DNA of 64,000 bases from Bradyrhizobium icense. Its GTDB lineage: Bacteria; Pseudomonadota; Alphaproteobacteria; Rhizobiales; Xanthobacteraceae. Positions 6,779-18,619 of the stretch are shown one piece after another; position 1 is the first letter of the stretch, and every line of letters begins with the position of its first letter. Below the pieces are notes generated by a model that was not told the origin of the DNA, made no database searches, and worked only from the letters and a program-made list of their open reading frames with translations. The position numbers and the translations under genes were made by a program. The stretch is taken from positions 6,510,001 to 6,574,000 of the forward strand of contig NZ_CP016428.1 in the NCBI RefSeq assembly GCF_001693385.1, given 5' to 3'.

Positions 6779-6853
6779 TGGCTGGGGCGGGAGGGATCGA
6801 ACCTCCGAATGGCGGAATCAAAATCCGCTGCCTTACCGCTTGGCTACGCCCCA
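6779..6853 (-). tRNA. tRNA-Gln (anticodon TTG)
   Basis: On the minus strand this 75-base gene folds as a tRNA. The acceptor strand TGGGGCG pairs with CGCCCCA, followed by discriminator G and an encoded CCA at 6781-6779. The D arm is GCCAAGCGGTAAGGC, the anticodon stem-loop is GCGGATTTTGATTCCGC with TTG in the loop, and the T arm is GGAGGTTCGATCCCTCC. TTG reads CAA/CAG, giving glutamine. Confidence 0.97.
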
Positions 6854-12699: not shown

Positions 12700-13330
12700 C
12701 TGGCGCGGCTCTTTGTCGGGCGTAACGAATTCGTTTGCGTCAACGTTCGTAGACATGGCCTCACCTTCTCGCGGCGCACGGCGCCCGAGGTTTGCATGAA
12801 CCTTTCCCTCAAAACAGAGGGAGCAGGGAATGCCGGGTGCTTGCTGCACCCGCGGTCTCGTGTGCAAGAGATGGAGTGAGATGCGCACACGAGCATACAG
12901 GTACAGCCGGAGCACTCCGGCATTCCCTGCGCAATGGTCTTACGGCTTATGCCGCGCTCTCCCTGGAGACGAATTCCTCTTGCCTCCATCACTGCCGGCT
13001 TGATGACGGATCGATCCGGTTGGATCGATTTCGCCACCGGCAGCTTGGCACCAGCCACGGGTGTCAGGACCACACGGTTTTGCCGTACGCTTCAGCGCCG
13101 TACGTCCTGCGCGCTGTTGCTCGCTCACGGATAACCGCCCTGCGAACACGCATCGCGCCGACGCTGCTGCGTCCACCGCATCCCACCCCGCGTCCGTGAC
13201 GATCGCGATCCGCCCCTCGTGAGGGATGAGACGGCGGAATTTTTAGTGCTGATTTGGGGTGATCGAAAAGGAAATTGTTTTTCGGAAGGGACTGGACGGG
13301 GCAAATCACGTTGAAATGGCCGGGAAATTA
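12700..13330. repeat. Structured non-coding element resembling a dispersed bradyrhizobial repeat
   Basis: A roughly 630-base stretch with no convincing gene. Its core is a long nested inverted repeat. GCAGGGAATGCCGG (12823-12836) pairs perfectly with CCGGCATTCCCTGC (12917-12930), and inside it CTCGTGTGC (12857-12865) pairs with GCACACGAG (12885-12893). I recall closely similar text, including the downstream part near 13260-13310 (AAGGGACTGGACGGG), at many intergenic sites in Bradyrhizobium. That is memory, not a search. Short ORFs on both strands are incidental. It borders the lower-G+C cassette. Confidence 0.55.
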
Positions 13331-13535
13331 GCGTTTTCGAGCAAGGCTCATAGCTGGGTCAAAGTTGATTCGACCGAAGGCGAAACGATGAGTTGGGGCA
13401 CCATCACCGCATGCGGGATTAAGGGTCAACACAACCAATCGGATCGGTTGTTGTTGAAAGGTTGCGTATCGCAGGGTTGCAGCTACATTGTGCCCGTACC
13501 CGCTCAGCCACGTATTTCAAAGTTCATTTAGCGCA

Positions 13536-13994
13536 ATGAAGTCTAACTCGCCCGCTTGGATACTCATCTTCGGCGCTGGCATGGTGTTTGGCACGATGCT
13601 AGCGGTCACGAATATCTTTGAATGGAAACTGGTGCCGGAGGGAGGTCAGGTCAAAATGGCCTATCACGAACTCATCTCCATCCTTCTCACCGGCATCGGG
13701 GTGATACTCGCCGCACTCGCACTTTTTATTGGCGCTCTCGCAGTGTGGGGTTACTCCCAATTTCAATCTATGACCCGCACGGCTTCGGGCGAACATCTTG
13801 AGAAACTCCTCAAGGATGGCCCTTTCCGAAAGGAAGTTGAACACATAATTGTCAAGCATGTTTCCGCGCAAATAAAGGACGGCCCACTGCGAGATATCCT
13901 GGTTGAACGCGTTGATATATTGATTCACAGCAATGCCGAGGAGCGCGCCGACCGAGATACGGGAGACGATACAGATGACTCTGACATCAAGTGA
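13536..13994 (+). CDS. Two-helix membrane protein, first gene of the accessory cassette
   Basis: 152 residues from ATG 13536. Membrane helices at about 7-26 (WILIFGAGMVFGTMLAVTNI) and 47-72 (SILLTGIGVILAALALFIGA), then a charged about 80-residue cytoplasmic tail ending in an acidic stretch (RDTGDDTDDSDIK). No known family is recognised. It lies 24 bases upstream of the metallopeptidase gene and shares its lower G+C, so it is probably the first gene of that operon. By analogy with membrane effectors of defence systems it could be an effector or anchor; this is inference only. No good ribosome site is visible. Confidence 0.72.
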   Translation: MKSNSPAWILIFGAGMVFGTMLAVTNIFEWKLVPEGGQVKMAYHELISILLTGIGVILAALALFIGALAVWGYSQFQSMTRTASGEHLEKLLKDGPFRKEVEHIIVKHVSAQIKDGPLRDILVERVDILIHSNAEERADRDTGDDTDDSDIK

Positions 13995-14018
13995 CGCATC
14001 TCCGCAGGTTGCACGACG

Positions 14019-14516
14019 ATGATAAGTGAACTGGGCCGCCTGGAACGGGCCGAACGGGAAAGAATATCGGAATTTTTGAGCGAGGCGCCTGTCAGCTTGT
14101 CTGCCCTTGCGAACTCGCTCGGGCTCCGAGTGATTTCGGCAAAACTACCTAATGGAATTTCTGGTGAGATTCGGCCTGACCATGAAGCACCGGCCGGCTA
14201 CATCATTCGCGTCAACAAGAATGACCCGGCGCGCCGTCAGCGGTTCACGGTTGCCCACGAAATAGGACACTACCTTTTACATCGCGATGAGATCGGCGAC
14301 GGAATCACAGACGACATTTTGTACCGGTCCTCGCTCTCAGACAGCAGAGAGGCACAAGCGAATAGAATGGCTGCTGATCTACTGATGCCCAAGCCGATCG
14401 TTGACACCTGGATTGAACGCGCACGAGCGCTTCAAGTTGAAGACCTTGTGGGATTTCTCGCGGACAAATTCAACGTTTCGACAGCTGCAATGAAGATTAG
14501 GTTGGGAATCGAGTAG
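14019..14516 (+). CDS. ImmA/IrrE-family metallo-endopeptidase
   Basis: 165 residues from ATG 14019. The zinc motif HEIGH is at residues 80-84 (FTVAHEIGHYLLHRD), and the third ligand is Glu111 in REAQANRMAADLLMP, the standard ImmA/IrrE layout. Residues 10-45 form a helical segment of the type often preceding these domains. Known members cleave phage-type repressors or act in stress control, normally next to an XRE regulator gene. Here no such regulator exists; the neighbours are a membrane protein upstream and a beta-family protein 25 bases downstream. The target is unknown. Confidence 0.9.
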   Translation: MISELGRLERAERERISEFLSEAPVSLSALANSLGLRVISAKLPNGISGEIRPDHEAPAGYIIRVNKNDPARRQRFTVAHEIGHYLLHRDEIGDGITDDILYRSSLSDSREAQANRMAADLLMPKPIVDTWIERARALQVEDLVGFLADKFNVSTAAMKIRLGIE

Positions 14517-14541
14517 AGCATCTAGTCGTGGGGAACGAAAC

Positions 14542-15609
14542 TTGGTCGATTTCAGTCAATTTTCTTATGTACCGATTTTGGCAGTCCGTCCATCAGAGAT
14601 GACCGCGATGGAAGAACTCGTTCCTGCCGACAAAGACTCTATATTGCCTTACATCACACTGCGACCATGGCTCGCTGCCCGTCACATAGAGCCTGTCATC
14701 GCGAAGGTTGAAGCGGCAGTAGGACATCGACCCGTCATCATTGACCTAACTAACGAACGATTTGACCAAGGAGAGCGACGCCGGGCTGTCCATGACGTAC
14801 TTGATGAGTTGCGAGACCCAACCAACGGCTATAGAAATTTCTACGACTTCATTGGAGAACATGAAAACTTCGTCCCAAGCTTGCAGTTGAACGCTCCAGC
14901 GGAGATTGACGCACAGGTCCCCATTGTCGCCGCTCTCGGCAGAGGCGTTGCGGTCAGACTAACCGAGCCGATGTTTAGATTTTCTACATCGATAGCGCAG
15001 CGGCTGGTTCACATTGAGGATCACTCAACGATACATTTCATTGTGGACTTCGAACGCCAAACCGCAGAGCTTCTAGCTCGGGCAGCCGGAGCAATTGGCA
15101 TCGTGGAAGGTATTCGGAGAATACTGCCCGATTCATTCGTTTCGGTGTCCGCCTCAACGTTTCCGGCAAACTTCGTCAATATAACGCAACAAGCAATTTT
15201 CGAACGCCAGTTCTACGATGAAGTGGTGAGGCATATTAGACATCGAAACGTTATCTATTCTGACCGCGCGTCGGTAAGAGTGGAGAGGCAATCAGGTGGA
15301 AGTGGAGCGCCGGCCCCCCGCATTGACAATGCTTTGCCGACGGATTGGCATTTCTTCAGAGTTGGGGACGATGATGTAGACCGCGATGCTGCATACCAAA
15401 TGGCCGCATTACGCGCCGTCCGCTCTCCGGGTTGGGCGAATCTCGGCGTATGGGGCACAAGCGAGATCATTAAGACCGCGAACGGCGACGGCGCAATAAT
15501 CTCGGCCCAGCGCTCGACCGCCGTCAGAATAAACATTCACCTTCACCAACAAGCGAACTTTGGGAAACCGCCTGCCTTGCCGGATTCAGAAACCGATTGG
15601 AGCGACTAA
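14542..15609 (+). CDS. Beta-family protein (sce7725-like)
   Basis: 355 residues from TTG 14542, after GTGGGGAACG. The opening FSYVPILAVRPSEMTAMEEL matches the beta protein/sce7725 family, whose members begin YVPILxxKxGE. Alternating strands and helices suggest a TIM-barrel-like fold (IHFIVDFERQ, RILPDSFVSVSASTFP). Members are found in phage and accessory regions, and in Sorangium the sce7725 and sce7726 loci are adjacent, as the equivalents are here. The molecular function is not known. The stop TAA overlaps the opposing gene's stop. G+C is clearly lower than the flanks. Confidence 0.82.
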   Translation: MVDFSQFSYVPILAVRPSEMTAMEELVPADKDSILPYITLRPWLAARHIEPVIAKVEAAVGHRPVIIDLTNERFDQGERRRAVHDVLDELRDPTNGYRNFYDFIGEHENFVPSLQLNAPAEIDAQVPIVAALGRGVAVRLTEPMFRFSTSIAQRLVHIEDHSTIHFIVDFERQTAELLARAAGAIGIVEGIRRILPDSFVSVSASTFPANFVNITQQAIFERQFYDEVVRHIRHRNVIYSDRASVRVERQSGGSGAPAPRIDNALPTDWHFFRVGDDDVDRDAAYQMAALRAVRSPGWANLGVWGTSEIIKTANGDGAIISAQRSTAVRINIHLHQQANFGKPPALPDSETDWSD

Positions 15610-16352
15610 GCTAGTAGGCTTGGAAGTGGCAGCAGACTGTCTGAAGCTTCTTGCGCCCATTTTTGCCAGAAGATTTGCTCGTCTTGCTGCATCAAAGCGC
15701 GACGCGTTCTCAAATCTGAAAATCGACTCAACGCTAACATCCTATCTGGATCAATCTTTTTATCAGCTACTTCATTCCAGAAGGCACGGCTTGAGTGCAC
15801 AAAGGTCCGCTTGAACGCTTCGATTGCTGCCTCATAAACATCTTCAGTCCGCAACTCACTAGCCGAGATATTTAATCGACCTCGATAGACGCCATCGTTA
15901 TTGCTAACCGGCGCGAGACGGCGGAGTTGAGCAAGGCTACAAAGATTTGCCAGAGCCTGTGCCGATTGACTGCGATTCACGCCAGCGGCTTGTGCCTGAG
16001 TAAGATTTCCCAGGGAATCGACTGTCCACAGCTCAACCGGAGCAGGAAGCATTTCAGTCACTTTTTGGCTGTGTCTTTGGTCGATGACCACGATCACGCG
16101 ATCAAAGCATTGGAGGTATGCCTGCAACTGCCAAGAAAGCCGCCGGAGGGAATCGAATTTGCTCTTAAACTCAACGCCGATGAATTCGCCGTTCCAAATT
16201 GCTAAGTCAATCCTACGACCAACTCGGCCAAGCGCATACTCTGAAGCGATGATTGAATTTTGATCAACCGTACGCAGGCCGCGAAGGTGCTCTAAGAACA
16301 AGCACTTCAAGGACACTTCATTCAGTGGTGCAATATAGTCAGGATTAGACAT
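15606..16352 (-). CDS. sce7726-family protein, putative PD-(D/E)XK nuclease
   Basis: 248 residues on the minus strand. Residues 36-63 carry ASEYALGRVGRRIDLAIW then FIGVEFKSK: Asp49 and Glu61-x-Lys63 form the D-(x11)-ExK core of PD-(D/E)XK enzymes, and Gln75/Tyr79 (WQLQAYLQ) resembles the RecB-type helix motif. The rest is helical. It matches the sce7726 family in style. It converges on the beta-family gene with interlocked stop codons (CTAA at 15606-15609). I infer a nuclease acting with the three plus-strand genes; there is no functional proof. Confidence 0.8.
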   Translation of the reverse strand: MSNPDYIAPLNEVSLKCLFLEHLRGLRTVDQNSIIASEYALGRVGRRIDLAIWNGEFIGVEFKSKFDSLRRLSWQLQAYLQCFDRVIVVIDQRHSQKVTEMLPAPVELWTVDSLGNLTQAQAAGVNRSQSAQALANLCSLAQLRRLAPVSNNDGVYRGRLNISASELRTEDVYEAAIEAFKRTFVHSSRAFWNEVADKKIDPDRMLALSRFSDLRTRRALMQQDEQIFWQKWAQEASDSLLPLPSLLA

Positions 16353-17677: not shown

Positions 17678-18619
17678 TCACCCGATCGGCTTCAGCCCGG
17701 CCTCGATCGCCGCCCTTCGCGGCTCCAGGAATGGCGGCAGCGCCAGCTTTTCGCCGAGTGTTTCCATCGGCTCATCCGTCGCAAAGCCCGGGCCGTCGGT
17801 GGCTATCTCGAACAGGATGCCGTTGGGCTCGCGGAAATAGAGGCTGCGGAAATAGAAGCGGTCGATCTCGCCGCTGTTGGGGACGCGGAGCTCGTTCAGC
17901 CGCTGCGCCCAGGCGTGGTACTGCGTCTCGTCAGGAGTACGGAACGCGACATGGTGCACGCCCCCGGCGCCTTGCCGCGCCACCTGAACATTCTTGTCCT
18001 CGAGCACATGCAACTCCGCGGCGGGGCCGCCCTCGCCCATCGCGAACACATGAACCTGCGCGCCGTGGGCGGCGTACTCGCGCACGCGGCGCATGTTCAT
18101 CACTTCGGTCAGCACGAAGGCGGTGCGCGACAGCTCCTGCACGGTCAGCACGATCGGACCGAGGCCGCGGATCTGGTGCTCTGATGGCACCGGGCTGCGC
18201 TCCCATGGCGAGGCCGCGCCCTTCCCGCCATCGTCGACCATCACCAGCCGCTGCCCCTCGCCGTCCTCGAACGGCAGCGTCAGCCGGCCGTCGACTTCGA
18301 TGATGTCGCCAGTGACGCCGCCGGCCTTCTTGAGGCGATCCCGCCAAAAGCCGAGGCTTTTCTCGCCCGCAACGCGCAGGCCGGTGCGCGAGATCGAATT
18401 GGTTCCGCGCCGTTCGGGGGCCGCGGGGAAATCGAAGAAGGTGAGATCGGTGCCGGGATTGGCTTTACCGTCGGCATAGAACAGGTGATAGGCGCTGACG
18501 TCGTCCTGGTTGACGGTCTTCTTGACCAGCCGCATGCCGAGCAGGCCGGTGTAAAAGGCCAAATTCTCCCGCGGCTTCGCGGAGATCGCGGTCAGGTGAT
18601 GAATTCCGCCTAGCTGCAT
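17678..18619 (-). CDS. Ring-cleaving dioxygenase of the VOC/glyoxalase fold
   Basis: 313 residues with two VOC modules. The first starts [20 protein letters not shown] with a metal-ligand His. The second has [20 protein letters not shown] and [16 protein letters not shown], giving the second His and the Glu. Such enzymes (MhqO/PcpA-like) are Fe(II) dioxygenases that open hydroquinone- or catechol-type rings, and some act in quinone stress. The length is normal for the two-module form. The ATG is at 18619. Neighbours give no pathway clue; the substrate is unknown. Confidence 0.82.

What the first reader, a model, noticed from the sequence alone, without database searches (positions are those of the whole stretch)
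13536..16352. Candidate uncharacterised defence or stress cassette: membrane protein, ImmA/IrrE peptidase, sce7725-like and sce7726-like proteins
Seen: three plus-strand genes spaced 24-25 bases apart (two-helix membrane protein; HEIGH metallopeptidase; beta/sce7725-like protein) meet a convergent gene with a D-x11-ExK nuclease core. All are visibly lower in G+C than the flanks and sit between a dispersed repeat and an IS630 element. Known: ImmA/IrrE proteases control phage-type repressors, PD-(D/E)XK nucleases are common effectors, and sce7725/sce7726 are paired unknowns. Inferred: the four act together, perhaps with the peptidase releasing the nuclease or membrane protein on phage or DNA-damage signals.
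Basis: partly seen in the sequence, partly recalled or inferred. Interest (0 to 1): 0.82.

Follow-up and report, generated by a model that had tools for sequence, protein, structure and literature searches.

The report
Four-gene relative of phage-defence cassettes
A bacterium carries a four-gene set (membrane protein, peptidase, barrel-shaped Beta protein, nuclease-fold protein) that recurs as a unit in other bacteria and combines parts of known phage-defence systems, so it is probably a self-sacrifice defence, though nothing here was tested at the bench.

Summary
In detail: three plus-strand genes (gaps of 24 and 25 bases) meet a convergent gene whose stop codon overlaps Beta's. The set is not orphan. 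Gene 3 is a P4 Beta protein (PF14350) and gene 4 is P4 cII (sce7726). Phage P4 has gop-beta-cII in the same layout, a published anti-phage system. Here the gop position holds a different membrane protein, and a 165-aa ImmA/IrrE peptidase stands between it and Beta.

The unit recurs. In 37 Beta loci from sampled genomes a peptidase directly precedes Beta in 26 (14 short type, 12 fused to further domains) and cII is adjacent in 26. Betas with the short peptidase form mainly one clade (58 of 62 rows, SH-aLRT 99). The cII core residues are invariant in 77 of 77 sequences; its model has a PD-(D/E)XK-like fold. The Beta model is a TIM barrel. One genome fuses membrane protein and peptidase.

Most likely it is a toxin-antitoxin-like abortive-infection module, intermediate between gop-beta-cII, PD-lambda-2 and RosmerTA: a new variant of a known kind. 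Trigger, peptidase substrate and toxicity are inferred.

The parts
13536..13994 (+). two-helix membrane protein (152 aa; an upstream TTG at 13488 is possible); putative toxin/effector in the position of P4 gop
   Evidence: ORF; two hydrophobic peaks; family alignment A7 of 55; no Pfam or NCBIfam family above its cut-off and no PADLOC match
14019..14516 (+). stand-alone ImmA/IrrE (M78) metallopeptidase, 165 aa, no separate HTH_3 domain
   Evidence: PF06114 1.9e-20; PADLOC capP 2.2e-30; family relatives CapP 7t5t and IrrE 3dte in the PDB
14256..14270 (+). HEIGH zinc-binding motif; H80, E81, H84 and E111 invariant in the 60 short-type peptidases aligned (rows were chosen to hold HExxH; E111 was not selected for)
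   Evidence: the only short-type locus without the motif is the split gene L116
14542..15609 (+). P4 Beta family protein (355 aa), predicted TIM barrel
   Evidence: PF14350 1.5e-50; 26% identity to P4 beta; model mean pLDDT 94.8; TIM barrels
15606..16352 (-). cII/sce7726 family protein (248 aa), predicted PD-(D/E)XK-like fold with C-terminal helices
   Evidence: NF033832 1.7e-24; PADLOC cll 8e-30; model mean pLDDT 93.9; nucleases in the structural second look
16164..16208 (-). D49-x11-E61-x-K63 core (E38, D67 and Q75 are invariant too)
   Evidence: invariant columns in 77 sequences
15606..15609. 4-base overlap of the Beta and cII stop codons; the same spacing in 19 of the 50 loci that labelled short-peptidase with cII
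12767..13256 (.). dispersed repeat upstream, not part of the system
   Evidence: 41 matches in the own genome, itself included; extent

Best explanation
This is a toxin-antitoxin-like, abortive-infection anti-phage module. The membrane protein (two hydrophobic helices, a conserved second helix and an acidic tail that is probably cytoplasmic) is the toxin and would permeabilise the inner membrane when free. The stand-alone ImmA/IrrE peptidase and the Beta TIM barrel hold it in check, and together they sense infection. Phage infection (a phage protein, or single-stranded DNA acting on the peptidase as reported for PprI and CapP) changes the peptidase-Beta-membrane protein assembly and frees the toxin, stopping growth before phage release. 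The convergent PD-(D/E)XK-like protein is an accessory nuclease, common but dispensable. Shown here: families, predicted folds, conserved motif residues, conserved order, and one membrane protein-peptidase fusion. Inferred from relatives: toxicity, neutralisation, defence. Guessed: the assembly, the trigger, the peptidase substrate and the nuclease target.
For: P4 gop-beta-cII has the same layout and protects against lambda and P1; gop is toxic without beta (passages of PMC9122126; P4 gene table). PD-lambda-2 joins a HigB-like protein, an Xre-peptidase and a P4-beta-like protein that defence needs (passages of PMC9519451); one PADLOC PD-Lambda-2_C model matches 57 of 96 Betas at E <= 1e-5. The RosmerTA pair of phage Kita, an ImmA antitoxin with a membrane-depolarising toxin, defends against phages (passages of PMC10440598); Kita gp32, annotated as a metallo-protease next to a small predicted membrane protein, is 31% identical to the window peptidase. 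Membrane protein and peptidase also pair without Beta in 3 genomes and are fused in L126. Distances of the four proteins correlate over 44 loci (rho 0.38-0.71; best of 200 permutations per pair 0.24). Eight of 18 viral-contig Beta loci have the short peptidase, a conjugative plasmid carries the four genes, and a close relative lacks them at the syntenic site.
Against: No defence or toxicity assay of this arrangement was found or run. The membrane family is not detectably related to P4 Gop (hhalign probability 9.5) or Kita gp33 (E 0.39). In PD-lambda-2 the Xre-peptidase was the toxic part, rescued by the HigB-like protein, so roles may be swapped; P4 works without a peptidase. The shared-distance signal is also expected from common descent in the same hosts. 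The flank scan for defence genes covered 120 of 326 flanking ORFs and is only suggestive.
Confidence: 0.55

Rival explanations
1. The membrane protein and peptidase form the complete RosmerTA-like pair, with the peptidase as antitoxin; Beta and cII are an independent module that merely rides along.
For: Three genomes have the membrane-peptidase pair without Beta; in P4, Beta and cII occur without any peptidase; 11 of 37 sampled Beta loci have cII but no peptidase found.
Against: In 61 of 63 loci labelled short-type the peptidase lies within 30 bases of Beta on the same strand; Beta distances correlate best with peptidase distances (rho 0.71); in PD-lambda-2 the Beta-like protein is needed for defence.
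Confidence: 0.2
2. Proteolytic activation: on infection the peptidase cuts the acidic tail of the membrane protein and so switches it on, a gasdermin-like logic (that comparison is recalled), with Beta as inhibitor or sensor.
For: The peptidase keeps its metal-site residues (HExxH in every short-type locus but the split L116; E111 in 60 of 60); the membrane protein's tail is net acidic (3 or more charges in the last 20 residues) in 45 of 56; one fusion puts the peptidase directly behind that tail.
Against: In published RosmerTA the ImmA partner is the antitoxin; no cleavage site was identified; P4 gop-beta-cII has no peptidase gene.
Confidence: 0.15
3. The peptidase cleaves a repressor elsewhere (CapP/CapH or PprI/DdrO style), so the genes are a DNA-damage-regulated stress cassette rather than defence.
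For: PADLOC capP 2.2e-30; PDB relatives are CapP and IrrE; ssDNA activates PprI and CapP (passages of PMC10904395).
Against: None of the four genes has an HTH family match above its cut-off, and the linked partners are relatives of defence proteins.
Confidence: 0.08

Closest known systems
gop-beta-cII of satellite phage P4 (Rousset et al. 2022, PMC9122126; passages read)
   Same: Beta and cII families; a small membrane-type protein first; cII convergent to Beta
   Different: P4 has no peptidase gene there; the window's membrane protein is not Gop by PADLOC model or profile comparison
PD-lambda-2 (Vassallo et al. 2022, PMC9519451; passages read)
   Same: ImmA/IrrE peptidase followed by a Beta-family protein; PADLOC PD-Lambda-2_B matches the window peptidase at 4e-7
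   Different: its first protein is HigB-like and its peptidase is fused to an Xre domain; the window has a membrane protein, no HTH_3 match, and adds cII
RosmerTA (RmrT/RmrA), for example Gordonia phage Kita (PMC10440598; passages read)
   Same: short ImmA/IrrE protein beside a small membrane protein
   Different: peptidase gene first in Kita, unrelated membrane protein sequence, no Beta or cII annotated next to it
CapP/CapH of CBASS and PprI/DdrO
   Same: M78 peptidase family
   Different: no cognate HTH repressor among the four genes

Membership tests
gop-beta-cII | Beta family protein | tested here: met
   PF14350 1.5e-50, PADLOC beta 5.6e-43
gop-beta-cII | cII family protein, convergent to Beta | tested here: met
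   PADLOC cll 8e-30, 4-base convergent overlap
gop-beta-cII | Gop protein upstream of Beta | tested here: not met
   PADLOC gop does not match the window protein at E <= 10 nor any of 55 family members at E <= 0.001; hhalign probability 9.5
gop-beta-cII | first gene toxic, neutralised by Beta, phage protection | not testable with these tools
   needs bench work
PD-lambda-2 | Beta-like protein C after a peptidase protein B | tested here: inconclusive
   gene order and families agree and PD-Lambda-2_B matches the peptidase (4e-7); a C model matches 57 of 96 Betas but the window Beta only at 0.018
PD-lambda-2 | peptidase fused to an Xre helix-turn-helix | tested here: not met
   165 aa, no HTH_3 match at E <= 1; only a sub-cut-off match to PF0610-like_N (0.004, residues 13-37), whereas 5 of 5 long-type relatives scanned match HTH_3
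PD-lambda-2 | HigB-like first protein | tested here: not met
   window protein is a two-helix membrane protein with no HigB or PADLOC match
RosmerTA | ImmA/IrrE protein beside a toxin gene | tested here: inconclusive
   peptidase homologous to Kita gp32 and beside a membrane protein, but that protein is not related to Kita gp33; toxicity unknown
PD-(D/E)XK nuclease fold (cII protein) | fold and catalytic residues | tested here: met
sce7725 family | match to an NCBIfam sce7725 model | tested here: inconclusive
   no NCBIfam family matched the window Beta at E <= 1 and no sce7725 model matched any of 96 Betas at E <= 0.001; that the release holds such a model is recalled
CapP/CapH | cognate CapH-type HTH repressor in the operon | tested here: not met
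   no HTH family above its cut-off in the four proteins

The most novel reading that the evidence does not exclude
A previously unnamed defence family in which a phage-sensing TIM-barrel protein (Beta) gates a stand-alone ImmA/IrrE peptidase that proteolytically switches a membrane pore on, a bacterial protease-activated pore pathway. The P4 gop-beta-cII system would then be a relative that lacks, or has lost, the peptidase.
Probability: 0.15. Interest if true: 0.8.

Novelty: new variant of a known kind. Interest (0 to 1): 0.52.

Why it matters
It links three separately described anti-phage systems (gop-beta-cII, PD-lambda-2, RosmerTA) through shared parts and suggests that Beta often works with an ImmA/IrrE peptidase. 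The PADLOC model for gop does not recognise the membrane protein, so such loci may be missed as complete systems. It turns the roles of Beta and of ImmA/IrrE peptidases in defence into a four-gene deletion experiment.

Tried and rejected
Rejected: that Beta is sce7725; that the membrane protein is a detectable homologue of P4 Gop or of Kita gp33; that cII is obligatory.

Led nowhere: profile searches of the PDB with the Beta, membrane-protein and cII alignments gave no credible sequence relative. Promoter and terminator scans were near chance (4 found against 2.6 expected; 3 against 3.9). ORF lists at the syntenic site of three relatives showed other genes between the flanks, not an obvious defence hotspot; in G933 the gap holds about 1.7 kb of other sequence, so it is not a clean empty site. 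A tRNA scan found only tRNA-Gln at 6779-6853. Paper searches (10 of 10 used): (sce7726, sce7725) listed 5 papers, none opened; some searches gave PMC9122126 (116 also PMC4936722, listing only); none; (PD-lambda-2) 5 papers, of which passages of PMC9519451 and PMC12824646 were read; a long list, from which passages of PMC10440598 were read; (CapP, CapH) 4 papers, passages of PMC10904395 read; one search was swamped by unrelated beta proteins; one search gave PMC10440598 and noise. I saw no paper describing the four-gene set in these listings and passages, which cover open-licence PMC only.

Limits: the 100-locus set is biased toward Betas like the window's (searches use window-based patterns); only the 37-locus genome sample is used for prevalence, and it is drawn from the window's own family, order and phylum. 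Dropped: 8 near-identical Betas; L073, L077 and L090 (duplicate or truncated) from the 37. L068 and L082 were moved to the long-peptidase class; the tree and the counts still carry the old labels. The tree is a quick tree (SH-aLRT only). The aligned peptidases were picked with the HExxH motif as a condition, so its invariance is partly by construction. The membrane profile was built from Beta-linked loci, and that search scored at most 10 candidates per genome. Two short-type viral loci without cII (L097, L100) hold under 700 bases after Beta. Flank scan: 120 ORFs taken by hand from a shuffled 150 of 326 (very long ORFs and the window's own left out), and 120 of 170 control ORFs in the same way; at E <= 1e-20 the flanks gave 76 PADLOC families (first 25 seen, one member each) and the controls 9 (mad3 in 4 members, RtcR-type in 2, ShosA, PDC-S07, PsyrA and MzaA in 1 each); many models describe one protein, so these are not counts of systems.
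Full report
WHAT IS THERE. The window is part of an 8.32 Mb single-contig genome. Genes at 13536-13994, 14019-14516 and 14542-15609 (+) are followed by 15606-16352 (-); gaps are 24 and 25 bases and the last pair overlap by 4 bases at their stops. G+C falls to 0.49-0.55. A dispersed repeat lies upstream. In relative G933 the sequence matching the window runs to 12708 and resumes at 17685, with about 1.7 kb of other sequence between, so repeat, cassette and the transposase-like ORFs are absent there; the locus was gained or lost within the genus.

WHAT THE GENES ARE. The peptidase is PF06114 (1.9e-20), closest in PADLOC to CapP (2.2e-30); its family alignment matches CapP 7t5t and IrrE 3dte in the PDB. 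NCBIfam gave only a sub-cut-off match to the spr1629 repressor/antitoxin family (2.9e-10, 39.8 bits against 335). Beta is PF14350 (1.5e-50). The convergent gene is NF033832 sce7726 (1.7e-24) and PADLOC cll (8e-30). In phage P4 the same two families are beta and cII, with a small membrane-type protein, gop, before beta and cII convergent (one hydrophobic peak over threshold, a second by eye). Pasteurella phage Pmp11 has the same three-gene layout. The window's membrane protein matches no Pfam or NCBIfam model above its cut-off and no PADLOC model.

HOW OFTEN IT RECURS. Beta (PF14350) was sought in 248 family-level, 347 order-level and 398 phylum-level genomes: 12, 18 and 13 had it (the samples share some genomes). 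Of the resulting loci, 37 had a Beta of at least 300 aa after duplicates were removed. With L068 and L082 reassigned, 14 have a short peptidase directly upstream (7 with adjacent cII; of the other 7, L056 cannot be judged because the contig ends), 12 a long peptidase (8 with cII) and 11 none found (all with cII). In a wider, window-biased set of 100 loci, 62 are short-type after that correction (49 with cII). On the uncorrected 63, the peptidase is within 30 bases of Beta in 61, and in 56 a hydrophobic membrane ORF directly precedes it. Of the other seven, L126 is a fusion, L141, L095 and L116 have a profile match elsewhere in the locus, L067 only a weak one (0.001), L091 begins at the contig edge, and L068 is the reassigned one. 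All 50 cII neighbours of that uncorrected class are convergent, 19 with the same 4-base overlap. The short-type Betas fall in one clade of 58 rows (SH-aLRT 99) plus a four-row group (81); the P4-like rows (11 rows, 86) and the long-peptidase rows stand apart (quick tree).

RECIPROCAL TEST. The NCBIfam sce7726 model, independent of my loci, matched 21 places in 18 of the 347 order-level genomes: 12 beside Beta and 9 elsewhere, so that family has other lives. It passed its cut-off in 13 genomes, 12 of which have it beside Beta. The membrane-protein profile matched 15 genomes. Eight of these matches are beside Beta, but those loci helped to build the profile. Three others (G561, G361, G383) sit beside an M78 peptidase with no Beta found nearby and no Beta in the genome list. 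Four weak ones (2.5e-5 to 8e-4) were not examined. The search scored at most 10 candidates per genome, so distant relatives may be missed.

RELATIVES AND MECHANISM. Passages read: PMC9122126 (gop-beta-cII protects against lambda and P1; gop toxic without beta), PMC9519451 (PD-lambda-2), PMC10440598 (RosmerTA), PMC10904395 (ssDNA activates PprI and CapP). The window set shares Beta and cII with the first, peptidase plus Beta with the second, and a short ImmA/IrrE protein next to a membrane protein with the third (Kita gp32: 31% identity). Which Kita genes are RmrA and RmrT is my inference from the record. The membrane proteins form one family across Alpha- and Gammaproteobacteria with a conserved second helix and are the least conserved of the four (mean pairwise identity 21% against 48% peptidase, 37% Beta, 27% cII over 44 loci). 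The most conserved is the peptidase, which P4 lacks. I therefore read the core as membrane toxin plus peptidase plus Beta, with cII as a frequent accessory. Distances of all four correlate, peptidase-Beta most (0.71), membrane protein-cII least (0.38); common descent in the same hosts would give this too. Toxicity, trigger and substrate are inference.

SETTING. Eight of 18 viral-contig Beta loci are of the short-peptidase type, and a conjugative plasmid of Neorhizobium carries all four genes, as expected for mobile defence genes. Among 120 of 326 flanking ORFs were matches to Gabija GajA, DRT4, type III restriction, AbiEi, AbiD and MzaA. The 120 control ORFs matched mad3 (4), RtcR-type (2), ShosA, PDC-S07, PsyrA and MzaA. 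I take this as suggestive only.

VERDICT. A real, conserved, probably defensive unit; a new variant of a known kind, not a categorically new system.

Noticed in passing
L126:5973-6980 (Sphingomonas sp. 7/4-4): Membrane protein and ImmA/IrrE peptidase are one 336-aa reading frame, keeping the acidic tail between them; only one example, so an assembly or sequencing cause is not excluded.
   Followed up: partly
L074:4322-6039 and L087:4295-6030: Another Beta variant: DUF6932 protein (PF22014), then an HTH-M78 protein, Beta and convergent cII; L080 looks alike by sequence.
   Followed up: partly
L196, L197, L198: Membrane protein-peptidase pairs of this family without any Beta within the fetched stretch.
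   Followed up: partly
L116: The peptidase is split into two adjacent ORFs, neither holding the HExxH motif: an apparently broken copy in Acidisoma silvae.
   Followed up: no
L256:4453-4988: The peptidase frame of a Neorhizobium plasmid locus is missing from the PLSDB gene table although the sequence encodes it.
   Followed up: yes
window 12767-13256: Dispersed repeat with 41 matches in the own genome, itself included; it also lies at the syntenic site of relative G938.
   Followed up: partly
L101, L108: P4-like Beta-cII loci in viral contigs where the nearest upstream ORF resembles a CI/LexA-type repressor by sequence (recognised by eye).
   Followed up: no
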